A DNA stretch of 64,000 nucleotides from Haliotis asinina. Lineage: Eukaryota > Mollusca > Gastropoda > Lepetellida > Haliotidae. Below are positions 18,813 to 36,565 of the stretch, piece after piece (within the stretch, counting starts at the first letter, position 1; the number at the start of each line of letters is the position of its first letter). A program made the translations under genes and the position numbers. The stretch spans positions 58,460,004 through 58,524,003 of the forward strand of contig NC_090280.1 of assembly GCF_037392515.1 (NCBI RefSeq). Reading direction: 5' to 3'. The notes beneath the pieces are model-generated. The model was not told the origin of the DNA, searched no databases, and saw only the letters and a list, made by a program, of their open reading frames with translations.

Positions 18813-19535
18813 CATTAATATTTTCATGCAATAAATGCGTTTTAATGAAATAAATAGAGAACCTAAAGTGTTAGTATCAGTGTGACAGGTTTGTCCTGTG
18901 TAGGGACACACGACGTTTGGCATAGATGTGTTCATATGGTTAGGTATGTGTGTTAGGTGGGACAGAGGGCGGAGATGCATGTATTCAGGTAAAGTAGTAC
19001 AAGGATGCATGCATTGGGCGACGACTTGAGCTTGTGTGTGAATACTAGTATATGTGTGTCGATATTTTGTTAAAAGTGTTCGTCTTTAACACATGTTTAA
19101 TTTTGTTAAAAGTGTTAGTCTTTATCACATGTTTAATGCTTCTGAATGACTTAAATGCGTGTTCCGTACCAGATATCGAATATCTATCCAAACTATTTAA
19201 TAGACTATCTTTTACAACGCGAGGCGCGCATATAGAAACTGGCATATTTGGTGACAAAACATTCAGTCTGGTGAACACTAAATTCTGTATTCTTCATTTA
19301 GCGATGACTACATGACTGATTTCGACAAATTTATAGGATGGCGTTCTGGAAGGTGGTTCAGTTGATCACTGTTACAACAGTCGGTCTTAACGACATGTAT
19401 TCACTATGGACAGAAAACCCGCAATTCCCTGGTTCGTTAGATATGATAGTTGAGTCCGCCTTTAAACAGCAAAGAAACAAAACAAAACAAGATATTTTAT
19501 GTCATGAACAGTCACTCATTCCTTGTCTGTTGCAG
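18813..19535. other. Intron/upstream sequence before the Kv exon
   Basis: Contains a direct duplication of GTTAAAAGTGTT(C/A)GTCTTTA...CACATGTTTAAT at about 19,070 and 19,105. The sequence just before 19,536 is a pyrimidine-rich acceptor (CCTTGTCTGTTGCAG). The frame stays open for 66 codons upstream of the acceptor, but that segment has no channel homology and is probably intronic. Confidence 0.5.
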
Positions 19536-22071: not shown

Positions 22072-22279
22072 ACATCACATAACTGCCTCAAGCGGAAGCC
22101 ATCTACGGTTTCCAGCGTCTTCGCTACTTCCTCTACGACTGGGTACAGACCCATCCTATAATGTATATTTTGAAAGATATTTTAATTGGGTTTCAGTTAA
22201 AAACCTATCAATGAATTTGAAGTCTATAAGTTCTAAACTACCACTCAGGGTAATAGGTGAGAGGTTAATAGATTTTTCT
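22072..22279. repeat. Perfect 208-bp copy of internal Polinton sequence outside the left TIR
   Basis: 22,072-22,279 matches 23,211-23,418 base for base by eye. The internal original covers the N-terminal coding part of the leftmost element gene and the C-terminal end of the first fibre-like gene. The copy ends one base before the ACTTT that abuts the left terminal repeat. It could be a remnant of another identical element, a repair or gene-conversion filler made during integration, or an assembly chimaera. The 200 bp to its left (21,870-22,071) is not recognised. Confidence 0.9.
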
Positions 22280-22284
22280 ACTTT
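22280..22284. repeat. Left target-site duplication ACTTT
   Basis: ACTTT directly precedes the AGTAGTATATAC terminus and recurs immediately after the other end (36,561-36,565). Counting one shared T, a 6-bp TACTTT duplication (22,279-22,284 and 36,560-36,565) is also possible, which would match the 6 bp usual for Polintons. Confidence 0.7.
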
Positions 22285-22628
22285 AGTAGTATATACAATG
22301 ACAGTTCTGGACCACTTTCAACAAATGTCTCTACAAAGCCTTATTTAGTAAATAAGGCTTTGGTTGGGACCTTAGATCTTGCTACTATTACCCCTACTAC
22401 AAAAAGGTTGGGTGTCTATGAAACAGTTTACCGTGTATTGGTTGGAGGTAACACTGTGCCGTACGGTACGAGCAATAATTCTTCTCTTACAAACCCCCTA
22501 CCCGGCCCATCCCTCAAGTAGTACAAGTTAGGTTCGTCGGCTTTCATATCCACTTTATCTATGTTGTAAGTTTTGACTGACCATATAGGATCGGTGGCCC
22601 GCTTACGGCTATCGCCCTCGTGTTCCCC
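22285..22628. repeat. Polinton left terminal inverted repeat
   Basis: Reverse-complements the right repeat at 36,248-36,560. The outer about 117 bp differ at about four positions and the inner about 190 bp at about three. The left copy has an extra about 30 bp (from about 22,402) that includes ATGAAACAGTTTACCGTG, and a similar GATGAAACAGTTTAACGTG lies just inside the repeat at about 22,665. The inner part is a duplicate of the last about 60 codons of integrase in minus orientation. A 13-bp-arm hairpin (AAAGCCTTATTTA/TAAATAAGGCTTT) sits at 22,335-22,361. Confidence 0.93.
22443..22628 (-). pseudogene. Partial integrase C-terminus carried inside the left TIR
   Basis: The minus strand translates to the same C-terminal region as the integrase at 36,248-36,448 (GEHEGDSRKRATDPIWSV onward through the GRGFVREELL motif) with very few substitutions. 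It has no start, catalytic domain or matching stop. It exists because the terminal repeat extends into the integrase gene, and it may be kept identical by TIR gene conversion or replication. No independent function is inferred. Confidence 0.85.
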
Positions 22629-22676
22629 TACTACTTAACGTCTGTGCCTATGTCACGTTTATATCGATGAAACAGT

Positions 22677-23293
22677 TTAACGTGAACTGCCTACGATCTC
22701 TTTGGTGTTCATAATAAAGGCTTGCTGGGCTTTTTGTATCCCCTGTTCTATGTACTTTTTTTTCTCGTCCTCGCTGATAGCAGACTTACGAGACTTGGAT
22801 CGAATATCTTGTTTCATTCCGTTATATTTTTTGAGTTCAGAGAGGATTGAACGAAACTCCTCTTCTGAGATCTTACTATCAGAGAGTGCCGTGGAAATAC
22901 GCTCACTCACTGTGTTCAGCTTTGCTTCGGCCAGAACCCTGATCTCGTCGTGTTTCAATGCCTTACGATTAAGTCTGCGTGATACTAACTTAAGCGCCAA
23001 TCCTGCTAACCCTGCCACCCCAGCTGTTATTTCAATACCTAGCACTATAGGTGCAGCCACGATGGTAGCTAACAACCCAACGCCTGCCGCCCCTAGTCCC
23101 ATGCTGGTTGCCATAAGGGTAGTGTCAGCCCGTCCACGATATTGAAAGCTCTATTGTACTTTTTACATAGTGCTTTCCGCGTGTCACGGTCTTGTTCTAG
23201 TTGACGTTTCACATCACATAACTGCCTCAAGCGGAAGCCATCTACGGTTTCCAGCGTCTTCGCTACTTCCTCTACGACTGGGTACAGACCCAT
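22677..23293 (-). CDS. Hydrophobic conserved Polinton protein (frameshifted)
   Basis: The leftmost element gene, read leftward. The N-terminal part (23,293 down to about 23,131) starts MGLYPVVEEVAKTLETVDG and contains a charged helix. The second part (22,677-23,114 frame) has a glycine/alanine-rich hydrophobic segment (MGLGAAGVGLLATIVAAPIV), a second small-residue helix, a basic patch (VSRRLNRKALKHDE) and a charged coiled-coil tail. Both frames are open across 23,093-23,131 and clearly belong to one protein of roughly 200 residues. They are joined by a one-base slip at a short CCC run (plus strand) near 23,129. It is membrane-associated, and its function is not known to me. The N-terminal piece is duplicated outside the element at 22,072-22,154. 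It lies 1 bp from the end of the next gene. Confidence 0.75.
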
Positions 23294-23294
23294 C

Positions 23295-23960
23295 CTATAA
23301 TGTATATTTTGAAAGATATTTTAATTGGGTTTCAGTTAAAAACCTATCAATGAATTTGAAGTCTATAAGTTCTAAACTACCACTCAGGGTAATAGGTGAG
23401 AGGTTAATAGATTTTTCTGTTGTAATAAAAACCCCCAGGAGGCTTATTACGTGGTTTATAGGACCCGTGGTATCCTGTTGTATAACAATACGACAATATT
23501 TGCCTTTGTGTATGCTAAACCAGCTCATTAACACCCCGGGTAAAATTTGGTGTACTATTGGGGGGTCTCCATTGTCTGAATACTCAAAGAAGACTTCTAT
23601 GATGAGTGTGAAAGGGGGGAATATTATTTCAGGATTACTAAATGTTAATTTATTTTCGAATGAAGACGTTAACCCATTTTTGTAAGTTTTTCTTAATCCC
23701 CTCTCCGGAATGAAATCCCCGGGCCAGATACCGTTGTTCCTAATCTTAGAGATACGCCCCAATTCGGTTAATGTGATATAAGGTGAGGTGAGTGTTAAGT
23801 TGATCAGCCATTTGGGCTCTTTAAAATCTGATAACAACATCCGTCTGTACACGTTGTCTTTGAATTGCAGGATGTATAATTCATCTTCCTCACCAGGCTG
23901 ATCGAATCCCTCCGTATCTCCTAAGTCGTTAAGCGTAGTGTTGGGACGATGACTGGTCAT
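23295..23960 (-). CDS. Fibre-like protein 1 (candidate attachment protein)
   Basis: 221 residues, intact. The first about 40 residues (LNDLGDTEGFDQPGEEDELY then ILQFKDNVYRR) are paralogous to the N-terminus of the neighbouring 24-kb gene (ISDLGDTRGFDAPGVDGKSY). The C-terminal parts diverge, although both end in a related beta-rich block. A conserved N-terminal anchor with a variable distal domain is the organisation of adenovirus-type fibres. Placement beside the penton gene fits, because fibres dock on pentons. No trimerisation repeats or signal peptide are seen. The function is inferred from layout, and a lectin-like decoration protein is the main alternative. An AT-rich stretch with TATAATAATG lies just before the start. 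Confidence 0.6.
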   Translation of the reverse strand: MTSHRPNTTLNDLGDTEGFDQPGEEDELYILQFKDNVYRRMLLSDFKEPKWLINLTLTSPYITLTELGRISKIRNNGIWPGDFIPERGLRKTYKNGLTSSFENKLTFSNPEIIFPPFTLIIEVFFEYSDNGDPPIVHQILPGVLMSWFSIHKGKYCRIVIQQDTTGPINHVISLLGVFITTEKSINLSPITLSGSLELIDFKFIDRFLTETQLKYLSKYTL

Positions 23961-23970
23961 TATTATACTA

Positions 23971-24884
23971 TTACGATATAATTTCCAACTGGTTTTCTGA
24001 TAATAATTCAGGGGTGAACTTCATACCCATGAAGTGTATGTTGTCAGGCAGGAAGATATTGATTAGTGATATCTTGTTTTCCACGATCACGTTGACCCCC
24101 TGCAGACTGGTGTTGAGCCGACACCCACCCGCACGTAAACGTTGCAAACTTGATACTGGTGTCGTTTCACCCACCCGAGTTTGATCCCCTTCACGATCTC
24201 GACATCATTCCCCGATGGTTCCCCTAGGTAGACTTTGATGATCAGTGTTGAGTTTGCCGGTAGACTCTCTAGTATAGTGACCACACCTTCGAATTCAGAC
24301 ACCAACTGCAATTTCACGTTTTGTATGGCTGGTTTACTCGATAGCATGTGGGCTGCCATAGTGTTGAGTGGGCTGACGACTACGCTACGTCTCTGAGTTG
24401 GGACGTAAGCCATGAGCAGGGTTCCATTGTTCACGACTTTGTTTAGGTGGTTGTCTTTGTTATCAGTAAACACGTAGGGAGAGACGAGTCTAATATTGAG
24501 AAACCAGTCGTCATTATTGGGTAACAACACCCACTTGTCATCTTCGGTGAAGACGAGCATATATGGTTTGTTTTGGACGACGGTAGTGCTCTCAACATCG
24601 TCTAAGTCGAACAGTTTACCCCCGAACGATGGGTATATTATCCAATTATTATTACCGGTGTTGACAAGGGCGTACTTAGTGTTGACTGTTGCTCTTGTGG
24701 TATCTACTATATCACTTAGGGTTCCACCGGAGGGGATTTCAACGCGTTTGTAAATGTTGTTTTTCAGTTGCAAGGCGTACGATTTACCATCTACTCCGGG
24801 AGCGTCGAAACCGCGCGTGTCTCCAAGGTCGGAGATCCCGATATTGACGCATTTTTTCACTCCGGGCCCTTGTGCGCTGGTCAT
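23971..24884 (-). CDS. Fibre-like protein 2 (paralogue, frameshifted near the C-terminus)
   Basis: About 300 residues in two frames. The main frame (24,884 to 24,087) begins MTSAQGPGVKKCVNIGISDL and shares the DLGDT(R/E)GFD N-terminal module with fibre-like protein 1. A longer beta-rich middle follows. The frame breaks around 24,090-24,140, in a G-rich stretch on the coding strand. The other frame (to 23,971) continues with a tail ending FTPELLSENQLEIIS, comparable to the FLTETQLKYLSKYTL end of protein 1. Its start codon overlaps the stop of the upstream penton gene in an ATGA quartet (24,881-24,884), pointing to coupled translation from one message or very tight packing. Likely a virion surface protein, inferred from position and paralogy. 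Confidence 0.65.
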
Positions 24885-25534
24885 TTTACATGAAGCGTTA
24901 AGCTGAGGTATCCTATATTTACAGGATTATGATTTATATCTAACACCGATATTGTCAGCTCAGGTATGTTTCCCTGGATTAATCTCTTATACTGTCGTGG
25001 TGAAAACAACTCGGTTCTACCGTCGTTGTATTTCTCAGTTTTCACCGGCACTGCTCTCAGTATAGTGGAAGGGTGACCTCCTTGAATGTTATACGTTGTG
25101 CTCACCTGATCGAGATGAATGTACAGCTCTCGGTACGGTACTAGGTCGGGTAACTTCGTGCCTGTGACGGTTGTTGTTGGTTTTATCTCGTCAGGAGACA
25201 TACCGAGTATCCTCGCTAATGGTCGGCCGAGCCTCAAGGGGTTTCTTCCGTTGTTGATTAACACCACTGTACCGTTTGAGTCGTTCATCTTGAGTTCGGC
25301 TCCCAGGGGTTTGAAGACCTCGTCGTTTAGAGAGCACACGCTGTAGTAGCCGTCAGTTATCTGGCTGCGAGTTCCACTAACGAACAGCTTATTGTTGCTG
25401 ATATTAATGTTAGTCCATTGCGGTAGGTAGGTGATATCGCAGAGTGCGACTTCGAGTTGACCTGACGTGTTATCGATCGCGTGCGTCAGCTGAACGGCCT
25501 CACCGCTCGTTATTCCTGGAAGTGTTATGTACAT
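24881..25534 (-). CDS. Probable minor capsid (penton) protein
   Basis: 217 residues, intact, transcribed leftward from the 29-bp divergent gap. Penton proteins of Polintons are about 200-250-residue single jelly-rolls occupying capsid vertices. The size, beta-rich composition and C-terminal strand pair (LTISVLDINHNPVNIGYL then SLTLHV, a usual ending of this family: 'x-I-x-V-x-D-x-x-G-x-x-h-x-h-x-L-H') support the call. A PLRLGRPLARILGM segment sits mid-protein. It is followed with ATGA overlap by fibre-like protein 2, the neighbour expected for a vertex protein. The penton call rests on pattern and context. A structural comparison would settle it. Confidence 0.7.
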   Translation of the reverse strand: MYITLPGITSGEAVQLTHAIDNTSGQLEVALCDITYLPQWTNINISNNKLFVSGTRSQITDGYYSVCSLNDEVFKPLGAELKMNDSNGTVVLINNGRNPLRLGRPLARILGMSPDEIKPTTTVTGTKLPDLVPYRELYIHLDQVSTTYNIQGGHPSTILRAVPVKTEKYNDGRTELFSPRQYKRLIQGNIPELTISVLDINHNPVNIGYLSLTLHVK

Positions 25535-25563
25535 ATTATAATATATGAATTATATATTATAAT
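25535..25563. promoter_or_regulatory. Divergent AT-only promoter gap
   Basis: Only 29 bp separate the start codons of the penton gene (minus) and the 390-residue protein (plus). The gap is almost entirely A/T and nearly palindromic, with TATAAT-like boxes facing both ways (ATTATAATATAT ... ATATATTATAAT). Untranslated leaders must be extremely short unless transcription starts within the opposing genes. Confidence 0.6.
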
Positions 25564-26736
25564 ATGGATTTAGCACACTTGAAAATCGTGGTGAATGCAG
25601 ATGGTACGGGGTTTAAAACAACCTTTATTGATATCTTTGAAAAATATATCGTGTCCGTTAATAACGATCAGGCGGTGGTAAACTGGAATCAAAACCCAAT
25701 GCAGTTTTGGCAGAACCAACTCAACTTTGCTGTGTGGTGTGCGACGACAGGGTCGGGTGTGACACCAGACTACGGTATAGACGAACTGAGTAAGGCAGTT
25801 ATTTTGTTTCATATTTATTATCAAACGAGACGAATATTAAAGGAAATAAAGGCTCCTCTTCCCCAAGATATAGGGTGGAGTATGACGAATAACGGCTATG
25901 ATAGACGCGCTTATGAACGTATTTGTGGGGAGTTTGAGATTCCAACGAATAAAGACTTTCGCCTTCCTGGTGTGAACCATGGTCTCGGTATAGTTCTCGT
26001 GTACTTCTACAGGTCCGGAACATATTATGCCGGTTCTAAAGATGGTTCATACAACCCAAACCGTCATACATTTACAGGCCCCACAACGAATGAAAAGATC
26101 CATGTCAGCTGTATAAAGCAAACCAATCCTGATGCAGCCACAGCCTGGACTAAAATGATCTCAAAAACATCGAAAGGATTCACTCGTGCTGGTACAATAC
26201 GCTTGAACGACTCGATTCGAACGTACGTGTGGGCGCTGTTGGGTGCACAGTCGATGACGCGTTCCAACATCCTCGGTAAGGGAACTGCTTACGACGCTCA
26301 GACACAATTCGTTTCCAACGTTGAGGATGCTATCAATTCTCCAGTTGATCTCCCGAGGGCCATCGACCGTTACCAAAACGTGTTAGAATACGCCAGATCG
26401 AAAGTCAATTACGTGTTCGGCGTGGGGTTGTACATGGCTCCGAGTGATATGCAACTGAGAATAAAAAAAGTGGTGGGTTATAACAACAAAATAGTCATAG
26501 CCACGGCGGACCAAAAGTTGGGTATCAACCCCGATATTAACACCCCCTATATCCCACACATCCCACCACGTGAAAAGGGTATAGTGGCGCCACCCCCGGA
26601 GTCTAAAGTTCATGTGCCCCCAACACACCCCCATATACATGTGGGGGTACCCCCCTATCAGCAGCATATTGATAATAAAACGGCCCTGGTGGTTGGTGGG
26701 GTAACTTTGGGACTTATTTGGTTAAAGATTTCTTAG
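25564..26736 (+). CDS. Conserved Polinton protein of unknown function, C-terminal membrane anchor
   Basis: 390 residues, intact. The body is mixed alpha/beta with an FWQNQLNFAVWCATTGSGV segment near residues 48-66, an NHGLGIVLVYFYR segment around 140 and a long helical region (about 255-300). A proline/histidine-rich linker follows (about 335-372), then a single transmembrane segment at the very end (TALVVGGVTLGLIWLKIS). I recognise the general layout as a recurrent Polinton gene usually placed near the capsid genes, without an established role. The tail anchor suggests a membrane- or vertex-linked virion component. The linker DNA contains the GTGGGGGTACCCCCC palindrome found elsewhere in the element. 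Its stop overlaps the convergent gene's end by 23 bp. Confidence 0.8.
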   Translation: MDLAHLKIVVNADGTGFKTTFIDIFEKYIVSVNNDQAVVNWNQNPMQFWQNQLNFAVWCATTGSGVTPDYGIDELSKAVILFHIYYQTRRILKEIKAPLPQDIGWSMTNNGYDRRAYERICGEFEIPTNKDFRLPGVNHGLGIVLVYFYRSGTYYAGSKDGSYNPNRHTFTGPTTNEKIHVSCIKQTNPDAATAWTKMISKTSKGFTRAGTIRLNDSIRTYVWALLGAQSMTRSNILGKGTAYDAQTQFVSNVEDAINSPVDLPRAIDRYQNVLEYARSKVNYVFGVGLYMAPSDMQLRIKKVVGYNNKIVIATADQKLGINPDINTPYIPHIPPREKGIVAPPPESKVHVPPTHPHIHVGVPPYQQHIDNKTALVVGGVTLGLIWLKIS

Positions 26737-27894
26737 CCGCTACGTACACCAGACCCGCCACGGCGACGATGGCTGCCCACAGGTTTTGACTGAGCCACAT
26801 GGCAGTTTTAGACAGAGCGCTCAACAACCACGAGACGATGCTACCCAGGATGCCGGGAAGGGCTTCGGCGGCTTTACCAGCCAGTTTAGCTAGGCCTTCC
26901 CCGAGTTTTTTTATCCAGTCTTTAACACCCCCACCGCCACTTGGAGTTCCCCCGCCGCCGGCAGGCCCCACAGGGGTTCCTCCCACCAGTGACACCACCA
27001 GGGTTGATATGATGAAACCAAAGTCAGAATACTGGCGATGGTGATGCCTTGCTCCCGGAATAATATCCGAATCCTGTCTGCTAACGTGGTGTCTCGGTGG
27101 AGGACTTGATTGATGGTTTCCCGTATACGGCTGACCTGGGATCGAAGCTTTTCTTTGAAGGAGAATGCTGTCTCCAGCCAGACCTTCTTTTCCTCTTCCA
27201 CATCACGTATTCGTTTCTCGATGGGGGCTTTCAGAGCCTCGTCCTCAGTTTCACCGAGTTTTTTCCTTTCATAGGCGATGTGGTCGTCTATCTCACTCAT
27301 TTTGGCCGTGCTTTTCCAGAGATGACCACGAATGGTTTGCATTAACAGGTCCAACCCCCGCAGTTCCCTAAAGGTACTTTTGAGCCCCGGGAAGGGCTCG
27401 TTCTCGTAGTCGGCCAACACCTTTTTAATATCATAAGTCATGTTTTGATCCGATGGGGCGTCCCTGATGCCTTCCAGACTTTGAACTAACTCCGGAGGAA
27501 TCTTAGGTCGCGTGCCACCGTAATATTCTAAGCCTAGTTTATCGCGGATAAAGTCAATCCCATATTTTCTGGCCAATGTTGATAAGGCAAGCGGTTTTCC
27601 CGTGCTTTTATTCCCGAGATCGGCATCCGGGTGAGCCTTCAAACGCAGCGTTTTATTGATGAGGGTAAACTTGGAATGTTCCCTTCCCGGCTGCTTGATG
27701 TTGTCTCTAGTTTCAATTGCGTTGTAATAATCGTCGACGGCGCCCTTAATGAGTTCGGCCCTTTGCTTCGATAATGAGGTCTCAACTGCGTCGACAGCCG
27801 GCTGTAGGCCCGTACTGAATGAGGTCTCCTGGTCATCATCGAATGCCTGGGCACTATCGCCCGACATCTCCGTCATATCTATGTCTTCATCCAT
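26714..27894 (-). CDS. Coiled-coil core protein with amphipathic/transmembrane tail (frameshifted)
   Basis: Read leftward from 27,894. An acidic N-terminus (MDEDIDMTEMSGDSAQAFDD) leads to a basic-helical region and a coiled coil (about residues 190-265, KMSEIDDHIAYERKKLGETE onward). The sequence then runs into a REQGITIASIL segment at about residue 280. There the frame breaks (about 27,005-27,030). The alternative frame to 26,714 supplies a hydrophobic strand, a Gly/Pro-rich linker (GGTPVGPAGGGGTPSGGGG), an amphipathic helix (DWIKKLGEGLAKLAGKAAEA) and a transmembrane helix. The tail resembles membrane-active peptides described for adintovirus and adenovirus virion proteins (melittin-like or pVI-like), and the role is inferred. 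Without the break the product would be about 390 residues. It shares a 32-bp divergent gap with the major capsid gene. Confidence 0.75.
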
Positions 27895-27926
27895 TAGTAT
27901 TAAAAATATATTTCATTTATATAACA
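27895..27926. promoter_or_regulatory. Second divergent AT-rich promoter gap
   Basis: 32 bp between the core-protein start (minus) and the major capsid start (plus), with AAAAATATATTTC and ATTTATATAAC as TATA-like boxes. With the 25.5-kb gap it defines two back-to-back transcription origins for the structural genes. Confidence 0.55.
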
Positions 27927-29168
27927 ATGTACGGTAGAAAATTAGATCCTTTCAGAAGATTGAGAGAGCCATTAGGGGCCAGAGCCGTGCGACAGTCGGT
28001 GACCATCACCAACAATCCCAGCAAGATAGACCAGAATCAAACTCTGCTGGTTAGATTTCCAAACCTTGGTGAGAATGACCTCATTGTACCAGGCACTGTT
28101 CGACTGGCGTTCAATATCACGTTGACCTCCAACAACGACAAATGCGAGCTAGTGCGGAACGTGGGTCGAGCCATCATCAAGAAAACGACCGTCAAGATCA
28201 GCGGTAACGAGGTGCTGAGCATCGACGACAGCGACGTGTTTCACTGCTACAGGGATCTCTGGAAAAGCGAGGGAGAACGAGTCAATGATGTGTACCAGGG
28301 TATCAGCAAATCAACCCGGTCGCGCATAGGGTATGCCTTCACGCAAGACCAGCTAGACAAGCTATCGGACGGTGAAAAGGCCATCGCTCGAGCATACGGG
28401 AATCGATTCTGCGTGCCGCTAGACTTCGAGTTGCTCACGGGACACGCGCCGTTGGGTGATAGGCTCGAATACGAGCTCACGTTTAACGACTATAGCAAAG
28501 TAGTGCGTACGCCGAACGGTGATGAGGCCAGTTATGCCATAGACAACATCTCTCTGGAGTTCGACATGGTCACTAGCCCGGAGCTGGCCAGGCAGGTTCG
28601 AAGCCAGTACTCTGGGAAGATGGCTATCCTGTACGATCGCGTACTGAGGCATAGATCAGTCGTGCGAGATAAGAGCGACACTGTGTGGAATATCAACCTG
28701 AACGTGCCGGCGCGATCGATGAAAGGTATCCTGGTCGTCCCCGTGGAGTATTACGATCCATTCCGGAGGGACAGCGAGAAGTTTTTCAACCCCGAGATTG
28801 AAAAGGTGGAAGTTACCATCGAGGGCGTGCCCAACCAGCTGTTCAGTCATGGTATGAGACCACACCAGCAGTGGGATGAGATAAAAAAGCTACCAGTGGG
28901 GGACTACATAACAAAGGACCTGGACCTAGGCTCCGTGCAGATCGGTGAATACCTGACCACCAAGTACGCCCTATGGTTGGACATGCGATCCACGGATGAT
29001 GATAAACTGCACGGTAGCGGGCGCCGTATAGATAACGGCAGCGAAGGGATAACCATCCAGTTTACTAAGAAGGCTCAACCCGCTGGTAAGTTGAAATTAT
29101 ATCTGTACGTTATTATGGACGCGCAACTTAATATAGACAATGGGAGATTCGTGCAAGCCATCTACTGA
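27927..29168 (+). CDS. Major capsid protein (double jelly-roll hexon-like)
   Basis: 413 residues, intact. It assembles the pseudo-hexagonal capsid shell. The start at MYGRKLDPFRRLREPLGARA is chosen because it follows the AT-rich gap. An upstream ATG at 27,819 would read through the opposing gene. The N-terminal RxxxxPxGARAVRQSVTITN region and the paired beta-rich halves fit the Polinton major capsid. In the second half a VPVEYYDPFRRDSEKFFNPE block precedes VEVTIEGVPNQLFSHGMRPH. The C-terminus is KLKLYLYVIMDAQLNI. Its last 29 bp overlap the ATPase start, as expected for a morphogenesis operon-like cluster. Similarity to Polinton capsids is by recognition. The two-jelly-roll fold is known for the family. 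Confidence 0.9.
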   Translation: MYGRKLDPFRRLREPLGARAVRQSVTITNNPSKIDQNQTLLVRFPNLGENDLIVPGTVRLAFNITLTSNNDKCELVRNVGRAIIKKTTVKISGNEVLSIDDSDVFHCYRDLWKSEGERVNDVYQGISKSTRSRIGYAFTQDQLDKLSDGEKAIARAYGNRFCVPLDFELLTGHAPLGDRLEYELTFNDYSKVVRTPNGDEASYAIDNISLEFDMVTSPELARQVRSQYSGKMAILYDRVLRHRSVVRDKSDTVWNINLNVPARSMKGILVVPVEYYDPFRRDSEKFFNPEIEKVEVTIEGVPNQLFSHGMRPHQQWDEIKKLPVGDYITKDLDLGSVQIGEYLTTKYALWLDMRSTDDDKLHGSGRRIDNGSEGITIQFTKKAQPAGKLKLYLYVIMDAQLNIDNGRFVQAIY

Positions 29169-29799
29169 TGGGGGGTACCCCCCCACACCCCCCAACAATA
29201 AACTGCCACAACTACCCACTGACCCACACTGCGCCATAGTGTGCGGGCAGACTGGCTGTGGGAAGACCGTTTTCGTGTTGGATATGTTGGAGAGTTACTA
29301 CAAGAATGTGTTCGATAACATCGTTATCATGTGCCCTACTCTGAGCATGAATAAAACGTACGCGCGACCTTGGGTGATGACGGACCCGGACGTACACAAA
29401 ATCGACCCTGGAACACGCCTGCAGGACTGGTTGAAAGCTCTTCACGAGAAATTTAAAGGGGAGCCGACGCTGTTCATACTGGACGACTGCAGCGCTAATC
29501 GCGAGATAACAAAAAAGAGAGACATGCTATCGTACCTGGCCTTCTCCGGCCGGCATGCAAATCACAGCGTCTGGGTGCTAACGCAGAAGTTCAACTCGGT
29601 GTTGAAAGACCTCAGGGAGCAGACGCGATGGGTGGCCTTATTTCACTGCAAGGACAGGGATTCGTTCGAGGAGTGTTTGAGAGAGAACGATGTGATGAGT
29701 AAATTAGAACGGGAACGGGTGAAGAAACAACTCGCTGAAACTAAACACGCTAAGCTCGTGCTAAAGACCGACCAACCAGTAGCATATATAGTATGCTAA
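29140..29799 (+). CDS. Packaging ATPase (FtsK/HerA type)
   Basis: 219 residues. It powers translocation of the genome into preformed capsids. Walker A is GQTGCGKT (residues 36-43). Walker B is TLFILDD with the acidic pair at 115-116. A sensor-like WVLTQKFNSV segment follows, with an arginine-containing region near the end (LREQTRWVALF). The N-terminal leader is Pro-rich (GGYPPTPPNNKLPQLP) and is encoded by a G/C-rich palindromic DNA patch. The gene starts within the last codons of the major capsid gene. The stop falls at the beginning of a 10-bp repeat array. The sequence is compact and complete for Polinton ATPases, so the call is firm. Confidence 0.93.
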   Translation: MGDSCKPSTDGGYPPTPPNNKLPQLPTDPHCAIVCGQTGCGKTVFVLDMLESYYKNVFDNIVIMCPTLSMNKTYARPWVMTDPDVHKIDPGTRLQDWLKALHEKFKGEPTLFILDDCSANREITKKRDMLSYLAFSGRHANHSVWVLTQKFNSVLKDLREQTRWVALFHCKDRDSFEECLRENDVMSKLERERVKKQLAETKHAKLVLKTDQPVAYIVC

Positions 29800-29840
29800 G
29801 CAAAGCTAAGCAAAGCTAAGCAAAGCTAAGCAAAGCTAAG
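29795..29840 (+). repeat. 10-bp direct repeat array CAAAGCTAAG
   Basis: Four perfect head-to-tail CAAAGCTAAG units (29,801-29,840) preceded by a partial GCTAAG. The array begins at the ATPase stop codon and is followed by an AT-rich gap (TATATAGC...) before the next gene. It could be a regulatory protein-binding array, a 3' processing or termination element, or a slippage product. Confidence 0.85.
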
Positions 29841-29958
29841 TATATAGCTATGATATTTGAAGTGTTTGTCGTGTGCAACTTAACCTTCATTTCTCTGTGT
29901 TTTTGTCTGCATCGGGTATTATATAGTTAAAACTAAATCTTACTTGTTATATTATAAG
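29841..29958 (+). promoter_or_regulatory. Putative promoter region of the small-protein cluster
   Basis: 118 bp of mostly A/T with ATTATATAGTTAAAAC at about 29,919 and TTGTTATATTATAAG directly before the next start. It is the largest intergenic gap in the right half and probably drives the downstream genes. Inferred from composition only. Confidence 0.4.
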
Positions 29959-30582
29959 ATGGAGTGTGAGGAATTGCTCGAACAATTGTCTGTGGAGGGT
30001 TCCCCCACGCCGCCGGCAGGCCCCACTGATGACAAGCGAGAGAAACTGGTGGCGTTGGCTGTTGGCGGCAAAGCCAAACATTACTTTGGAGACTACACTC
30101 CGGATAAAAGTCACAAAATGTCAGCCGAAGAAATCGATAAGCTGTACGCTAGATACGAGTCCCGGCTCGGAGCAGAAATGACAAAGACAATAGGATCGGC
30201 TATGACCCAGATATACACCGGTATTGTATCATACTTCTTTCCCATTCCACCAGAGCGCCGACTTTACCTGTGGGAAGACCTCGAGAAAGACCCTTTTATC
30301 GAACACGCCGTGAGCTCTATCAGCTGCGGGCTGTACCACAAATATGGTATGTTGTTGGCTCCAGTGACGGCGGCGATTATCACGGCAAAACATTGTCAAT
30401 TTGAGAGAAAAAATAATAATAATAGTATAGATGGATGCTGCTCCCGAGGTGATACCCCCCACAGTGATGGAAGTGACCCCTTCACAGGAACCCCCAACAG
30501 TGAGGGAAACCCCACTGGGGGAAACCCCCACAGTGAGGGAAGTGACCCCTTCACAAACAGTAACCAGACAGAAGAATCCTAA
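29959..30582 (+). CDS. Conserved small Polinton protein, helical, low-complexity tail
   Basis: 207 residues from MECEELLEQLSVEGSPTPPA (preferred over the in-frame ATG five codons upstream because relatives that I recognise begin this way). The body has an AEEIDKLYARYESRLGAEMT helix, then IGSAMTQIYTGIVSYFFPIP and a semi-hydrophobic segment GMLLAPVTAAIITAKHCQF. From about residue 155 the frame runs through an Asn/Ser/Gly/Thr-rich tail. That tail overlaps the next gene in another frame. Function unknown. The hydrophobic patches suggest membrane or virion association. The Pro-rich GSPTPPAGP motif DNA (30,000-30,028) matches, inverted, the linker of the core protein at 26,945-26,973. Confidence 0.7.
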   Translation: MECEELLEQLSVEGSPTPPAGPTDDKREKLVALAVGGKAKHYFGDYTPDKSHKMSAEEIDKLYARYESRLGAEMTKTIGSAMTQIYTGIVSYFFPIPPERRLYLWEDLEKDPFIEHAVSSISCGLYHKYGMLLAPVTAAIITAKHCQFERKNNNNSIDGCCSRGDTPHSDGSDPFTGTPNSEGNPTGGNPHSEGSDPFTNSNQTEES

Positions 30583-30775
30583 GAGAGTAGCTGCCGGTAA
30601 AAAACAGTGGTGTAACCAACATAAAGTGACCAACCCAACCCGACTGTTGTTGGTTGTAGGTGTAACTGCTGCCTTGGCTATCTCGTGGTTATACGTGGGG
30701 GTACCCTCCCACAGTGAGCCCCCACCCAACAGTGAGCCCCCCACCCCCACGGTAGACCCGCATATCATGTTATAA
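30431..30775 (+). CDS. Single-pass membrane protein with Pro/Thr-rich ectodomain-like region
   Basis: 114 residues. The N-terminal about 45 residues are repetitive and rich in Pro, Thr, Val and Glu (EVTPSQEPPTVRETPLGETP), encoded by a GC-rich minisatellite of CCCCACAGTGA-type units. A basic cluster follows (RQKNPKRVAAGKKQW), then one transmembrane helix (RLLLVVGVTAALAISWLYV, about residues 71-90) and a short Pro/Ser/Glu-rich end. It overlaps the preceding gene by 152 bp in a different frame. Recognised as the kind of small anchored protein seen in Polintons. Function unknown. Confidence 0.6.
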   Translation: MDAAPEVIPPTVMEVTPSQEPPTVRETPLGETPTVREVTPSQTVTRQKNPKRVAAGKKQWCNQHKVTNPTRLLLVVGVTAALAISWLYVGVPSHSEPPPNSEPPTPTVDPHIML

Positions 30776-30801
30776 TTTTAATATTTTATATCATATACAT
30801 A

Positions 30802-31029
30802 ATGTCTGAGGGGAAAACGTTCGTCAACGACGCATACCACGCCACAGTGGTAGCCAGTCTAGCTGTAGGGTACGCTCGGTTGACTAAAATGGTGCTTAAA
30901 CAACCAACTATCAAGCTAGATTTCAACCTGCAGGATATGGGTATGCTCATAATGAACCTTGGTATGGCGATGGCCACAAAAGACATCCTAGTAAAACAAG
31001 GGATCATACCTGAAAATATAATGAAATAA
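30802..31029 (+). CDS. Small conserved hydrophobic protein
   Basis: 75 residues. It begins MSEGKTFVNDAYHATVVASL, continues with a hydrophobic-helical segment (MGMLIMNLGMAMATKDILV) and ends IIPENIMK. The AT-rich leader (TATAATTTTAATATTTTATA) upstream suggests its own promoter. It is followed by the next gene after 8 bp. Probably membrane-associated. No function known to me. Confidence 0.65.
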   Translation: MSEGKTFVNDAYHATVVASLAVGYARLTKMVLKQPTIKLDFNLQDMGMLIMNLGMAMATKDILVKQGIIPENIMK

Positions 31030-31037
31030 ATATAGGG

Positions 31038-31463
31038 ATGGCCACGATAGCTATGATGGTCGGTGGGGCGTTAGTGAATGCCCTGGCATTTTCCGGGAGT
31101 AATTTCCTCTTCTCGAAACTACGAGATGATCACGCGGCTGAAATACAGGAAGAAAGGAAGCGGCACGATCTCGCTACTGAGAAATTACAAAGAGCACAGG
31201 CCGATTACGCTAAAAAACGCCTCCAGAGGATCGATTTCATTAATGAACAACTCCAGCGTGAAAACCATGCCGTTCAAACATTCAACGATGTTGATGAAGC
31301 AATGAAAGAATACTACCTACTAACTGGTAAACAATTGGAACCGCTCAATAAACCCACACTCGCTCAGTACTACACACCATCCAAGGGACAAATGAATCGT
31401 GAACTGGGCTTCATAGTGTTGGGTATAGCAGCTACTGCGTTGGTTGCGAAGCAATTAAATTAA
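31038..31463 (+). CDS. Membrane protein with central coiled coil
   Basis: 141 residues. A glycine/alanine-rich hydrophobic N-terminus (MATIAMMVGGALVNALAFSG) leads to a long charged coiled coil (about residues 30-80). A YYLLTGKQLEPL/QYYTPSKGQ region follows, then a C-terminal transmembrane helix (LGFIVLGIAATALVAKQL). Two hydrophobic ends joined by a coiled coil suit a membrane-bridging virion component. Role inferred only. Confidence 0.65.
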   Translation: MATIAMMVGGALVNALAFSGSNFLFSKLRDDHAAEIQEERKRHDLATEKLQRAQADYAKKRLQRIDFINEQLQRENHAVQTFNDVDEAMKEYYLLTGKQLEPLNKPTLAQYYTPSKGQMNRELGFIVLGIAATALVAKQLN

Positions 31464-31482
31464 AATACCTATATAAGTAAAC

Positions 31483-31749
31483 ATGAGACCCGCTCCATAC
31501 CGATGCGAATACATACTTATGGGGAAGACCGAGGCCTGTGGTAGGAAATGCAGGAATCAGGGGTTCTGTTGTTTCCATATGGGAAGTCCTAACTACACGT
31601 GTTCTGTGTGTGGTATCGGGGTTAAAGGGCACTACTGTCTATGTAAAGCTCACGGAGCGAACGTAGTCAGACATCAACTCATCTACGAGAATAAAAAAGG
31701 CTACATAAAAGAACGTAGGCGACTGCTCAAGATAGACTCCAATGCGTGA
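31483..31749 (+). CDS. Small Cys/His-rich (putative zinc-binding) protein
   Basis: 88 residues with regularly spaced cysteines and histidines: RCEYIL...ACGRKCRNQGFCCFH, then TCSVCGIGVKGHYCLCKAH, followed by a basic tail (KKGYIKERRRLLK). Two zinc-knuckle-like CxxC..CxxH modules can be drawn. This suggests a nucleic-acid-binding or regulatory role, possibly a transcription cofactor. TATATAAG lies only about 12 bp before the start, so the transcript leader must be very short or start elsewhere. Confidence 0.65.
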   Translation: MRPAPYRCEYILMGKTEACGRKCRNQGFCCFHMGSPNYTCSVCGIGVKGHYCLCKAHGANVVRHQLIYENKKGYIKERRRLLKIDSNA

Positions 31750-31809
31750 AAGGGTTATCTCCCTTTACTGTGAACCAATTAGACATTGGTTCTCTTAGGT
31801 GTAAACACT

Positions 31810-34800
31810 ATGTCTACTGTACGCGAGCTCAAGCGGGTCGCAAAACAGAGAGGTGTGATCGGGTATTCTCGAATGCGGAAGTCAGCATTGTTGAGATTAC
31901 TAGGTTTAGAAGCCCCTCCTACGGTAACACAATTAAAAGCTCAAGCAAAACAGCTTGGATACACGGGTTATTCAAACCTGGGGAGAGCCGGGTTAACCGC
32001 ATTGTTATCACATGCCCCCGTAGCAAAACCTCCCACTGTAAAACAACTGAAAGCCGAGGCACACGATTTGGGTTTAGGCGGGTATTCCCGTATGAGAAAA
32101 CCACAGCTTGTAGAATTATTACGACAGAATAGAGCTATTGACCTACAGTTCGTGCGCACTGAGCGCGCTGTAGGCAACTATTTGAGAGGTTGGCGCATGC
32201 ACGTTGATAGAAACATAGACATTACAGATATCAAGCCTCTGATAGCTGATAAGGTCAACCAGGAACTAAATAACCTAGGAAGTATCAAGTTTCAGATCAC
32301 AGTGAAAATGTCGCTCGATAAGCAGGTTGGGAGTACCACTGAATATGTTCAGCCTTACTTCCGAGGTCAACAAGAGGTCGTCACACATACAGAGACCATT
32401 GATACATCAATCGATACCAGTTTTCAGCAGATACGAGAATACCTAGAACGCTACACACACTTGGGGTCCGGGTGGGTTGTAGATAAAATCGATAATGTTT
32501 ATCTAGACATAGCTAACTACGTGCCGTTCAGAGGCGGGTCATACCTAGCCTTGCCTCCCTACTATAGGAACAAACATGCCATAGTAAACGTTAAGAATAG
32601 AGGAAACGATTGCCTGAGGTTAGCTATCAGGTCAGCCTTATTTCCAGCTGGCACTCATTCAGATAGGCTTTCTAGCTATCCCCAAGACGATGGGCTCAAC
32701 TGGGATGGTATAGATGAACCCACCCCCATATCCCAGATCACTAAAGTAGAAAAACAGAATAATCTGGCTATAAATGTCTTTGGGCACGAAGGTAACACAA
32801 CAATAGTACACAGGGTCAGCCCGGTGAAGGATCGCCAAGTTATCAATATATTCATGATCCAACGAGGTGAAAAGTATCACTACACGTGGATAAAACATCT
32901 CAGCCGGTTGTTGCACGACCAGTCGAAACACGATGGGGAAAAACACTTTTGTGTACGATGCCTACACGGTTTCAGTCGAGCTGATTTATTAGAATCCCAC
33001 CGGGATGATTGTCAAGGTGTGGGGCAGACGGCCATACGAGTCGACATGCCTAAGGAAGGTGATAATATCCTAAAATTCAGTAACCACAAGAACCAAATGT
33101 CTGTGCCTTATATCATATACGCCGACTTCGAAGCCTTGGTTGTGGGTGGGGATTCCCCCAGTGGTAGCTTCACCCACAAGACACACGAGCATAAAGCCTG
33201 TTCGTTTGGATACATTGTCGTCCGTTGTGACGGGGAAACGAAAGCTCCGGTAGTGTATAGGGGCCCTGACGCGGCTGAAAGGTTTCTAAAGTGTTTGCAG
33301 GAGGAAGAAAAAATTATTAGGAATGTATTGTATAAAATCGCTCCCATGCGTCTGACCCAAGACGACAAGTTAGCTCACGCTAGTAGCACTAACTGTCACG
33401 TGTGTGACTCACCACTTAACGGTGATTCGGTGAGAGATCACTGCCACATAACTGGTAAGTATAGAGGCGCCGCTCACAACGCGTGCAACCTCAAGCTTAA
33501 AATCAACCCTAAGACAATAAACATCCCCGTTGTCTTTCACAACTTGAGAGGGTACGACTCACACTTGATCATGCAGGCCATCGCGAAAATCGATGGTAAT
33601 ATAACGTGCATCCCCAACAACATGGAGAGATACATCTCCTTCAGCTTAAACGGACTTAGGTTCATTGACTCGTTTCAGTTCCTCCTGTCGTCACTCGACA
33701 ATCTGGTCAAGGCCAACAATACCTTCCCTATCACCGATCGATACACAGACGCCGAGACTAGACCCCTGCTTATGAGAAAGGGTGTGTACCCCTATGAGTA
33801 CATGGATAGTTGGACCAAGTTCACCGAGACCAGACTACCCCCTATTGACTGCTTTTATAGCAAGCTGAATGTGGCGTCCGTCTCACGAGATGATTACTCG
33901 CACGCGACTAACGTATGGAATAAACTGGGTTGTAAGAACCTGGGTGATTATCACGACCTGTACTTGAGGACAGATGTACTGCTGTTAGCCGACGTGTTTG
34001 AAACGTTTAGGCGGACGTGTTTCAAGCAGTATAAACTCGACCCCGCATGGTATTACACCAGCCCAGGTCTGTCGTGGGACGCCTTGCTTAAAAAGACCGG
34101 AGTTAATTTGGAATTGCTCACAGATTACGACATGCACCTATTCATTGAGAAAGGCTTGCGAGGTGGGATTTCCATGGCATCCAAACGATACGCGAAAGCA
34201 AATAATCAATACGTGAAAGGTTACGATCCTAACAAACCAACCAATCACATTCTCTACCTCGACGCAAACAACCTGTACGGCTGGGCCATGAGTCAGTATC
34301 TACCTACAGGGGGATTCGAATGGGTACCCCACGTTGATGTTATGGGGGTTGCACCAGATTCGAACAAAGGGTATATCCTCGAGGTTGACTTAGAGTATAC
34401 CAAGGAATTACACACATCACATAACAGCTACCCCCTGGCCCCCGAACGTATGAGGGTTAACCCAGACTGGATGTCTGAGTACCAACATAACTTGTCAGGT
34501 GGGCGTGTGACAGACGTTGAAAAACTCGTGCCTAACTTAATGAATAAGACCAAATACATCGTTCACTATCGCAACCTACAGCTGTACGTGTCGTTGGGTA
34601 TGAGGCTGACCAAAATACACAGGGTGCTCATGTTCGACCAGAGCCCATGGATGGAGCCCTACATCAGAATGAACACAGACCTACGGAAAAAAGCCACCAG
34701 TGATTTTGAGAAAAATCTCTACAAGCTCATGAACAACTCGGTGTTTGGTAAGACTATGGAGAACCTGAGGAAACGCGTGACCGTGAAGCTGGTTTGGTCA

Positions 34801-35499
34801 AGTGAGGAAGACAAGCTCAGGAGATTGATAGCCAGTCCGGCATTCAACCGTAGTAAGATATTCACAGACAACCTGGTTGCCCTACACATGAAGAAAAGCC
34901 ACATAAAATTCAACCGGCCTGTTTACGTGGGGATGAGCATCCTCGATTTATCCAAACACCTGATGTACGACTTTTACTACAACGAGCTCAAGAAACAGTA
35001 CGGTGACAGGTGTGAAGTGCTGTACACTGACACGGATTCCCTGCTGATGGAGATTCGAACCGAGGACGTGTACGAGGACATGAAAAAACACCTCGATTTA
35101 TACGACACCAGCAACTACCCTAAGACCCATGCCATACACAGTACGGTAAATAAAAAGGTCCTAGGTAAGATGAAGGACGAGTGTGCTGGCACGCCCATAG
35201 CCGAGTACATAGGTTTGAGACCTAAGATGTACTCCATACTGAAAGCCGACAATAGTGAGATCCGGAAGGCTAAGGGGGTTAAGAAGTATGTGGTGAAACA
35301 ACACATCAAACACGCCAGATTCAAGGAAGCCCTGTTCAAGACCCGTACCTTTAGACATAAAATGAACACACTTAGAAGTGATGGACATAAGATATACGGA
35401 CTGACTATAAACAAGACGTCCCTGTCGCCTATGGACACGAAACGTTGGATAGCTATTGATGGGATAAACACATACGCGTATGGACATGAAAAAATTTGA
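31810..35499 (+). CDS. PolB: Protein-primed family B DNA polymerase
   Basis: 1,229 residues (start at MSTVRELKRVAKQRGVIGYS; an ATG eight codons upstream is alternative). It replicates the linear element by protein priming. Three tandem SAP/Rho-N-like repeats are at residues 3-32, 38-66 and 76-105. A CxxC...H...C finger is at about 381-402. Exonuclease motifs are YADFEAL (Exo I, Asp 439), NLRGYDSH (Exo II, 578-585) and DVLLLADVFE (Exo III, 722). An endonuclease VII/HNH-like zinc cluster (CHVC ... DHCHITGKYRG ... CN) lies at 529-560 between Exo I and II. Polymerase motifs A (LYLDANNLYGWAMS, Asp 818), B (NNSVFGKTMEN, about 975) and C (YTDTDSLL, 1072) are intact. It overlaps the integrase by 20 bp. 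All key acidic residues are present, so it appears functional. Confidence 0.96.
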   Translation: MSTVRELKRVAKQRGVIGYSRMRKSALLRLLGLEAPPTVTQLKAQAKQLGYTGYSNLGRAGLTALLSHAPVAKPPTVKQLKAEAHDLGLGGYSRMRKPQLVELLRQNRAIDLQFVRTERAVGNYLRGWRMHVDRNIDITDIKPLIADKVNQELNNLGSIKFQITVKMSLDKQVGSTTEYVQPYFRGQQEVVTHTETIDTSIDTSFQQIREYLERYTHLGSGWVVDKIDNVYLDIANYVPFRGGSYLALPPYYRNKHAIVNVKNRGNDCLRLAIRSALFPAGTHSDRLSSYPQDDGLNWDGIDEPTPISQITKVEKQNNLAINVFGHEGNTTIVHRVSPVKDRQVINIFMIQRGEKYHYTWIKHLSRLLHDQSKHDGEKHFCVRCLHGFSRADLLESHRDDCQGVGQTAIRVDMPKEGDNILKFSNHKNQMSVPYIIYADFEALVVGGDSPSGSFTHKTHEHKACSFGYIVVRCDGETKAPVVYRGPDAAERFLKCLQEEEKIIRNVLYKIAPMRLTQDDKLAHASSTNCHVCDSPLNGDSVRDHCHITGKYRGAAHNACNLKLKINPKTINIPVVFHNLRGYDSHLIMQAIAKIDGNITCIPNNMERYISFSLNGLRFIDSFQFLLSSLDNLVKANNTFPITDRYTDAETRPLLMRKGVYPYEYMDSWTKFTETRLPPIDCFYSKLNVASVSRDDYSHATNVWNKLGCKNLGDYHDLYLRTDVLLLADVFETFRRTCFKQYKLDPAWYYTSPGLSWDALLKKTGVNLELLTDYDMHLFIEKGLRGGISMASKRYAKANNQYVKGYDPNKPTNHILYLDANNLYGWAMSQYLPTGGFEWVPHVDVMGVAPDSNKGYILEVDLEYTKELHTSHNSYPLAPERMRVNPDWMSEYQHNLSGGRVTDVEKLVPNLMNKTKYIVHYRNLQLYVSLGMRLTKIHRVLMFDQSPWMEPYIRMNTDLRKKATSDFEKNLYKLMNNSVFGKTMENLRKRVTVKLVWSSEEDKLRRLIASPAFNRSKIFTDNLVALHMKKSHIKFNRPVYVGMSILDLSKHLMYDFYYNELKKQYGDRCEVLYTDTDSLLMEIRTEDVYEDMKKHLDLYDTSNYPKTHAIHSTVNKKVLGKMKDECAGTPIAEYIGLRPKMYSILKADNSEIRKAKGVKKYVVKQHIKHARFKEALFKTRTFRHKMNTLRSDGHKIYGLTINKTSLSPMDTKRWIAIDGINTYAYGHEKI

Positions 35500-36448
35500 G
35501 GCTATTTACTACAGCCCGCGTGGGTACTGGAAAGGAGCTAGCGCAGTAGATAAGCTAGCTAAAATAGCGCGAGTACCCCCGGAGGAAGCCAAAGCGTGGC
35601 TTGAAAAACAAGCCCTGTGGCAGATCTATTTGCCGGCACCACGCTACGTGCCTAGAAGGAGGTTCGGCATTAACACACCTAATAGCGTTCACCAGGCAGA
35701 CCTACTGTTCCTACCCCACGACAAGAGGTACAAGTATGCCTTAACCGTAGTGGACGTAGCCAGTCGTTACAAGGAAGCCGAACCCTTGACCACGAAAGAT
35801 TCGGCCCAGGTAGCCAGAGGATTCGAACGCATATACAAACGCAGTCCGCTGACGTGGCCAACAGAGCTGCAAGTTGACGCCGGACGGGAGTTCATGGGTG
35901 CCGTGTCACAACTGCTAGCCAAACACGATACAAAGGTCAGGCGTGGCATGGCCGGAGCCCATCGCAGCCAAGCCATAGTTGAGAGATTTAATAGGACTTT
36001 GGCTGAGCGCTTGTTCGGCCATCAGTATGCTAGGGAGATGGCCACCCCTGGAAAACGATCGACTGAATGGGTCACGAGGTTACCCAAGGTGGTGTCGGCA
36101 ATCAACCATGAAGTCACCCGTCTCACCGGTAAGAAACCGGCAGACGCTATCAAACTAAAATCAATAGTTGCAGAGTCGGCCGCTCCATTGCGTGGGAAGG
36201 AGAAACAGATACCAGATAGGGCCCTAGTGAGGTATCTATACCAGCCGGGGGAACACGAGGGTGATAGCCGTAAGCGAGCCACCGATCCTATATGGTCAGT
36301 CAAAACTTACAACATAGATAAAGTGGATATGAAAGCCGACGAACCTAACTTATACTACTTGAGGGATGGGCCGGGTAGGGGGTTTGTAAGAGAAGAATTA
36401 TTGATCGTACCGTACGGCACAGTGTTACCTCCAACACACGTTAAGTAG
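35480..36448 (+). CDS. INT: Retroviral-type DDE integrase of the Polinton
   Basis: 322 residues. It inserts the linear element into chromosomal DNA, generating the short target duplication. Catalytic acids are seen as HQADLLFLP (Asp 74), LQVDAGREF (Asp 133) and HRSQAIVERFNRTL (Glu 168). The last two are separated by 34 residues. No N-terminal HHCC zinc finger is apparent. A basic, beta-rich C-terminal region (KRATDPIWSVKTYNIDKVDM, then PGRGFVREELLIVPYG) is the chromo/SH3-like DNA-binding part. It starts within the last codons of the polymerase. Its last about 65 codons fall inside the right TIR, so an almost identical partial copy exists in the left TIR. Confidence 0.96.
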   Translation: MDMKKFEAIYYSPRGYWKGASAVDKLAKIARVPPEEAKAWLEKQALWQIYLPAPRYVPRRRFGINTPNSVHQADLLFLPHDKRYKYALTVVDVASRYKEAEPLTTKDSAQVARGFERIYKRSPLTWPTELQVDAGREFMGAVSQLLAKHDTKVRRGMAGAHRSQAIVERFNRTLAERLFGHQYAREMATPGKRSTEWVTRLPKVVSAINHEVTRLTGKKPADAIKLKSIVAESAAPLRGKEKQIPDRALVRYLYQPGEHEGDSRKRATDPIWSVKTYNIDKVDMKADEPNLYYLRDGPGRGFVREELLIVPYGTVLPPTHVK

Positions 36449-36560
36449 TAGGGGTAATAGTAGCAAGAGCTAATGGCCCAACCAAAGCCTTATTTACTAA
36501 ATAAGGCTTTGTAGAGACATTTCTTGAAAGTGGTCCAGAACTGTCATTGTATATACTACT
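36248..36560. repeat. Polinton right terminal inverted repeat
   Basis: Inverted counterpart of 22,285-22,628. It includes the integrase 3' end (to 36,448) and about 110 bp of non-coding end sequence with the hairpin AAAGCCTTATTTA/TAAATAAGGCTTT at 36,484-36,510. It terminates ...GTATATACTACT. Family knowledge suggests the termini are the protein-primed replication origins. Confidence 0.93.
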
Positions 36561-36565
36561 ACTTT
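36561..36565. repeat. Right target-site duplication ACTTT
   Basis: ACTTT directly follows the CTACT terminus and equals 22,280-22,284. Confidence 0.7.

What the first reader, a model, noticed from the sequence alone, without database searches (positions are those of the whole stretch)
22285..36560. Near-complete Polinton/adintovirus-like element in a molluscan genome
One bounded unit carries replication (PolB), integration (INT), packaging (ATPase) and capsid genes, all open, with low TIR divergence. Such integrated elements with full virion gene sets may still form particles or act as a reservoir. The particular gene order and content (two fibre-like genes, no visible protease) may mark an undescribed lineage.
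Basis: partly seen in the sequence, partly recalled or inferred. Interest (0 to 1): 0.9.

Follow-up and report, generated by a model that had tools for sequence, protein, structure and literature searches.

The report
Integrated Polinton virus, one gene broken
A 14-kb virus-like element of the well-known Polinton (Maverick) kind sits inside what looks like an animal chromosome, with most genes open but one structural gene broken; it is a good example of a known kind rather than a new one, although it carries two widespread structural-looking proteins that remain unexplained.

Summary
Positions 22285-36560 form one bounded unit: terminal inverted repeats (305 identities, 9 mismatches, 31 gap columns), the Maverick end motif AGTAGT//ACTACT, a 5-6 bp target duplication, 46.9% GC against 40.1% outside, and open PolB, INT, ATPase and MCP genes. 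It is a Polinton/Maverick endogenous virus (confidence 0.93).

Corrections. (1) Not all genes are open: the 327-aa gene has lost its frame; its C-terminal part lies in another frame, whereas 109 of the 120 listed relatives (of 414) hold both halves in one protein. (2) "Adintovirus" is not shown: no chromodomain was found on INT, and the capsid model ranks PBCV-1, ASFV and poxvirus D13-class capsids above mavirus and adenovirus hexon. (3) "Mollusc" is plausible but unproven. (4) A missing protease and a VP54-like capsid are both already reported for Polintons.

New member of a known kind. The 390-aa protein (612 relatives; pLDDT 87; no match in BFVD or PDB) and the 327-aa family are conserved, unexplained partners of the capsid gene. 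Host-genome copies are untested: 13 of 13 genome searches did not complete.

The parts
22279..22284 (.). left target-site duplication TACTTT (last 5 bases ACTTT exact next to the full end motif)
   Evidence: read; right copy 36560-36565 (TACTTT) or 36561-36565 (ACTTT)
22285..22628 (+). left terminal inverted repeat, begins AGTAGT; carries 31 nt more than the right TIR, within about 22401-22440
22677..23114 (-). 145-aa ORF with hydrophobic N-terminal stretch, function unknown
   Evidence: no Pfam match above a curated cut-off
23093..23293 (-). 66-aa ORF, unknown
23295..23960 (-). 221-aa fibre-like protein, paralogue of the next ORF
   Evidence: E 1.6e-10 between the two
24087..24884 (-). 265-aa fibre-like protein
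24881..25534 (-). 217-aa candidate minor capsid (penton) protein; assignment by position and recalled resemblance only
   Evidence: no match in Pfam, PHROGs or NCBIfam and none convincing in PDB sequences
25564..26736 (+). 390-aa conserved protein, mostly helical, predicted C-terminal helix (res. 364-389), no fold match found
   Evidence: 612 relatives; model pLDDT 87; no match
26714..26998 (-). 94-aa ORF that carries the C-terminal part of the 327-aa protein's family in another frame
   Evidence: 52 of 75 identical to P0241
26911..27894 (-). 327-aa ORF, N-terminal part of a family with median length 435 aa (120 listed relatives); frame lost near its end
27927..29168 (+). major capsid protein, double jelly roll (ORF open from 27819; start set by comparison with the consensus of relatives)
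29140..29799 (+). genome-packaging ATPase, A32/HerA type, Walker A GQTGCGKT and Walker B
   Evidence: Pox_A32 1e-8; PHROG terminase large subunit 1.6e-8; motifs
29959..30582 (+). 207-aa ORF, unknown
30431..30775 (+). 114-aa ORF with hydrophobic segment, overlaps the previous ORF in another frame
30802..31029 (+). 75-aa ORF, unknown
31038..31463 (+). 141-aa ORF, unknown, hydrophobic start
31483..31749 (+). 88-aa ORF rich in cysteine (9 Cys)
31810..35499 (+). type B DNA polymerase of the protein-primed kind, 1229 aa: three Rho_N/SAP-like repeats, OTU-like Cys and His motifs, Endonuclease VII-type insert between exonuclease motifs I and II, palm motifs A, B, C (motif names recalled)
35480..36448 (+). 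RVE-family integrase, 322 aa, D74/D133/E168; its 3' end lies inside the right TIR
   Evidence: rve 1.6e-10; motifs; overlap
36248..36560 (-). right terminal inverted repeat, ends ACTACT
36560..36565 (.). right target-site duplication (TACTTT, its first T shared with the end of the TIR; ACTTT without it)

Best explanation
An endogenous Polinton (Maverick): a linear double-stranded DNA virus-like element integrated in a eukaryotic, probably animal, chromosome. Inferred cycle, from the gene families: the RVE integrase joins both TIR ends to a staggered target (giving the 5-6 bp duplication); linear DNA is copied by the protein-primed PolB, whose N-terminal part would prime and whose OTU-like domain would release the primer (the mechanism proposed for Polintons in PMC11071308); the A32/HerA-type ATPase packages the DNA into an icosahedral shell of the double-jelly-roll MCP, with a 217-aa candidate penton, two fibre-like proteins, and two conserved virion-module proteins of unknown role (390-aa and 327-aa families). 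Shown here: boundaries, gene families, MCP fold (model), and conservation and contig-sharing of three structural-module proteins. Inferred: every biochemical step. This copy is probably no longer autonomous, because one conserved gene has lost its frame and the TIRs have diverged.
Against: Whole PolB gave no DNA_pol_B_2 match at E<=1 and its palm fragments (residues 611-1229 and 731-1229) matched no Pfam family even at E<=10, so the polymerase core rests on motifs. The target duplication is 5 bp unless one base is shared with the TIR, while 6 bp is described for intact vertebrate Mavericks. Penton and fibre assignments have no profile support. No named Polinton sequence was available to compare with, and contig-sharing by length is indirect.
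Confidence: 0.93

Rival explanations
1. An adintovirus (Starrett/Buck sense), i.e. with adenovirus-like hexon, OTU-bearing PolB and chromodomain integrase. Overlaps the Polinton reading, since some authors treat the two names as largely synonymous.
For: OTU-like Cys/His motifs in PolB; INT and PolB present; an adintovirus capsid protein is rank 7 in the BFVD search (E 3.3e-14); PMC10120064 passage.
Confidence: 0.15
2. A 'meldvirus' chimera of the kind of Meld23486: beta-adintovirus-like PolB and integrase joined to a poxvirus/Nucleocytoviricota-like capsid module. This would be a subgroup of, or a neighbour to, the Polinton reading.
For: MCP model matches a PBCV-1 capsid chain (23.8), faustovirus (22.2), ASFV p72 (20.5), PBCV-1 VP54 (20.5), Orf virus D13 homologue (19.5) and vaccinia D13 (17.7-18.9) ahead of Sputnik (17.5), mavirus (17.0) and adenovirus (15.2); ATPase best Pfam hit is Pox_A32; such genomes are described in PMC11071296 section 16 and Figure 7 legend.
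Against: VP54 was the first recognised match of Polinton MCPs (PMC4028283 passage), and an A32-type label is used for the ATPase of a polinton-like virus too (PMC12721341 passage), so neither needs a chimera. Meld23486 itself could not be compared.
Confidence: 0.3
3. A still active virus-like element able to make particles on its own.
For: PolB, INT, ATPase, MCP and 390-aa genes open; in the 188-nt TIR block that overlaps INT, 3 of 4 differences are synonymous.
Against: Frame loss in the 327-aa-family gene; TIR mismatches and a 31-column length difference. A sequence error at that spot is possible and not excluded.
Confidence: 0.12

Closest known systems
Polintons / Mavericks (class Polintoviricetes)
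   Same: TIRs with AGTAGT//ACTACT ends, type B polymerase with OTU-like motifs, RVE integrase, packaging ATPase, double-jelly-roll MCP; 14.3 kb lies within the 12.7-24.6 kb of intact vertebrate Mavericks
   Different: No recognisable protease (identifiable in 74% of Polintons in a set of 72); PolB, INT, ATPase and MCP all on one strand with penton/fibre candidates opposite, unlike the usual two inward-facing modules of vertebrate Mavericks, which have exceptions
Meldviruses with poxvirus-like hexon (Meld23486, PMC11071296)
   Same: PolB plus integrase with a capsid protein that resembles large-DNA-virus capsids, D13 included
   Different: Here D13 is among the good matches but not the best; no sequence comparison with Meld23486 was possible
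Adintoviruses
   Same: OTU-like motifs in PolB, RVE integrase
   Different: No chromodomain match on the integrase; adenovirus hexon is not among the better structural matches

Membership tests
Polinton/Maverick | terminal inverted repeats with conserved end motif | tested here: met
   motif described in PMC8097293
Polinton/Maverick | 6-bp target-site duplication | tested here: inconclusive
   ACTTT exact beside the full end motif; TACTTT only if the last T of the right TIR is shared
[quoted passage not shown]
   DNA_pol_B_2 2.6e-6 (27.1 bits, cut-off 25.8) in the exonuclease fragment, palm motifs by pattern; whole protein and palm fragments not matched by this profile; protein priming itself not tested
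Polinton/Maverick | RVE-family integrase | tested here: met
   rve 1.6e-10
Polinton/Maverick | FtsK/HerA-type packaging ATPase | tested here: met
   Pox_A32 1e-8, Walker motifs
Polinton/Maverick | double-jelly-roll major capsid protein | tested here: met
Polinton/Maverick | single-jelly-roll penton | tested here: inconclusive
Polinton/Maverick | adenovirus-like cysteine protease (usual, not universal) | tested here: inconclusive
   none among the 17 element ORFs scanned with Pfam at E<=1; a remote protease would be missed; identifiable in 74% of Polintons
Adintovirus | integrase with C-terminal chromodomain | tested here: inconclusive
   no chromodomain profile listed for INT at E<=10, but HMMER's filters drop most weak matches; feature taken
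Adintovirus | hexon reciprocally recognised by BLASTp | not testable with these tools
Adintovirus | PolB with N-terminal OTU-like domain | tested here: inconclusive
   Cys and His motifs present by pattern only
Meldvirus with poxvirus-like hexon | capsid protein structurally close to poxvirus D13 | tested here: inconclusive
   Orf virus D13 homologue 19.5, vaccinia D13 17.7-18.9, close to VP54 (20.1-20.6) but below the best row (23.8)
Meldvirus with poxvirus-like hexon | beta-adintovirus-class PolB | not testable with these tools
   no reference PolB set

The most novel reading that the evidence does not exclude
This element belongs to a large animal-associated Polinton lineage whose particle is built differently from the adenovirus-like one: a shell of the PBCV-1/poxvirus capsid type, no maturation protease, and two lineage-wide proteins (the 390-aa protein with a C-terminal anchor-like helix and a fold not yet matched, and the 435-aa-class protein encoded divergently from the MCP) that take over scaffolding, membrane or maturation roles. 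Five IMG/VR scans confirmed no member, so such viruses may be overlooked by current virus finders.
Probability: 0.25. Interest if true: 0.5.

Novelty: new member of a known kind. Interest (0 to 1): 0.3.

Why it matters
It gives a near-complete, well-bounded Polinton with named gene families and two conserved unknown virion-module proteins that can be worked on. The broken gene and diverged TIRs argue that this copy is a fossil rather than a live reservoir. Five IMG/VR scans confirmed no relative, while 1282 capsid relatives exist in general protein collections, which suggests, at the sensitivity of those scans, that this branch is under-recorded as viral.

Tried and rejected
Host-genome copies: the genome search on G000 was sent 13 times with the same request and did not complete; copy number, intact copies, and expression or small RNAs are therefore untested.

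Relatives with gene context: five viral-contig scans (MCP alone, MCP alignment, PolB part, 390-aa alignment, INT) and two genome-contig scans (MCP alignment, INT) confirmed no relative, so gene order could not be compared. Three of the five and one of the two used a single sequence with exact short peptides, which finds close relatives only, and the tool may leave out records very near the window's genome. Contig-length matching was used instead; it is indirect.

Phylogeny with named Polintons, adintoviruses and bidnaviruses was not possible: no named references, and the three homologous-protein searches went to the MCP, the 390-aa and the 327-aa proteins.

Host: the flanking 377-aa ORF (19338-20471) is Kv-channel-like, which says animal-like, not mollusc. 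Seven other long flank frames gave no informative Pfam match. Mollusc hints are only relatives' names: Elysia marginata (P0082, also named 'Major capsid protein' by UniRef), and MAGs of Candidatus Thiodiazotropha (P0013, P0030; clam symbionts, recalled).

Papers not held: PMC8502044, msad274, PMC1450207. Two further papers on molluscs (PMC12172486, PMC11067908; passages) mention adintovirus hits only in passing.
Full report
What is there. The unit runs from 22285 to 36560. The inverted repeats found by search are 22284-22400 with 36445-36561 (97% complementary) and 22441-22628 with 36248-36435 (98%). Aligned as a whole they give 305 identities, 9 mismatches and 31 gap columns; the left copy has the extra bases, within about 22401-22440. 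The ends read AGTAGT and ACTACT, the commonest end motif of vertebrate Mavericks (PMC8097293, passages). The target duplication is ACTTT next to the full motif, or TACTTT if one T is shared with the right end. A 24-base TIR end occurs only at the two termini within the window, allowing up to six mismatches. GC is 46.9% inside and 40.1% outside, and the 16 ORFs counted cover 92% of the unit.

The broken gene. After about residue 292 the window's 327-aa protein leaves its family, and the missing C-terminal part lies in another frame at 26714-26998, 52 of 75 residues identical to P0241. In 109 of 120 listed relatives both halves are in one protein at E<=1e-5; all 120 match the N-terminal piece. 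So the claim that all genes are open is wrong for this gene, unless the assembly has an error there. The overlapping 207-aa and 114-aa ORFs (29959-30775) could be a second case, but no relatives were available to test it.

Age and activity. Nine mismatches in 314 aligned TIR positions (2.9%), if the TIRs were identical at insertion and with recalled neutral rates of 1-4e-9 per site and year, would mean about 4 to 14 million years; this is an inference. In the 188-nt TIR block that overlaps INT, 3 of 4 differences are synonymous, too few to conclude from.

Comparison. PRO was identifiable in 74% of Polintons in a set of 72, and the Hydra Polinton MCP retrieved VP54 as its only significant HHpred hit (PMC4028283, passages). 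Cnidarian MCPs were the only animal ones outside the main Maverick-Polinton cluster in PMC10120064, which also calls Polintons and adintoviruses largely synonymous (passages). Genomes joining adintovirus-like PolB and INT with poxvirus-like capsids are described in PMC11071296 (sections 16, 18 and 25 read; further passages). That paper gives a chromodomain on INT as an adintovirus feature; Pfam found none here. Terminal-protein and OTU-like domains of Polinton PolB are described in PMC11071308 (passages). A Mercenaria genome paper tabulates Maverick at 1.69% and 1.93% (PMC8905726, passage; what the two columns stand for was not seen), and a bivalve transposon survey reports Mavericks across the mollusc genomes it analysed (PMC10294476, passage). 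I found no paper describing this gene set in a mollusc in the ten searches made (listings, with passages or sections of ten papers); the library lacks most subscription papers.

Verdict. A real, well-bounded Polinton with a mostly open gene set and at least one broken gene; a new member of a known kind. The interesting residue is the pair of conserved unknown virion-module proteins and the absence of confirmed relatives in five IMG/VR scans.

Noticed in passing
25535-25563 and 27895-27926: Both divergent gene pairs (217-aa/390-aa and 327-aa/MCP) are separated by about 30 A+T-rich bases with TATATA or TTATAA close to the start codons; 6 of 16 ORF starts have TATATA within 60 bases upstream against a mean of 0.54 in 5000 random placements. 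The motif was chosen after looking and some sites are shared by two starts; TATATA is rarer in the element than in the flanks (0.56 vs 1.03 per kb).
   Followed up: partly
36248-36448 and 22441-22628: The 3' end of INT lies inside the right TIR, so the left TIR carries a copy of that coding sequence.
   Followed up: yes
22418-22435 and 22667-22684: The extra bases of the left TIR contain an 18-base sequence that recurs, with one difference, just inside the TIR (read), perhaps the source of the length difference between the TIRs.
   Followed up: no
29959-30775: Overlapping 207-aa and 114-aa ORFs in different frames, the second with a hydrophobic segment; possibly one gene split by a frame loss.
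   Followed up: no
19338-20471: 377-aa open frame of a Kv-type potassium channel (Ion_trans 2.7e-37; PDB Kv1.2 1.8e-39) 1.8 kb left of the element; long and uninterrupted, so perhaps a retrocopy or an intron-poor gene.
   Followed up: partly
62445-62539: ARAGORN reports a tRNA-Thr (TGT) of 95 bases; Rfam at gathering thresholds reports no RNA in the window, so it is doubtful.
   Followed up: partly
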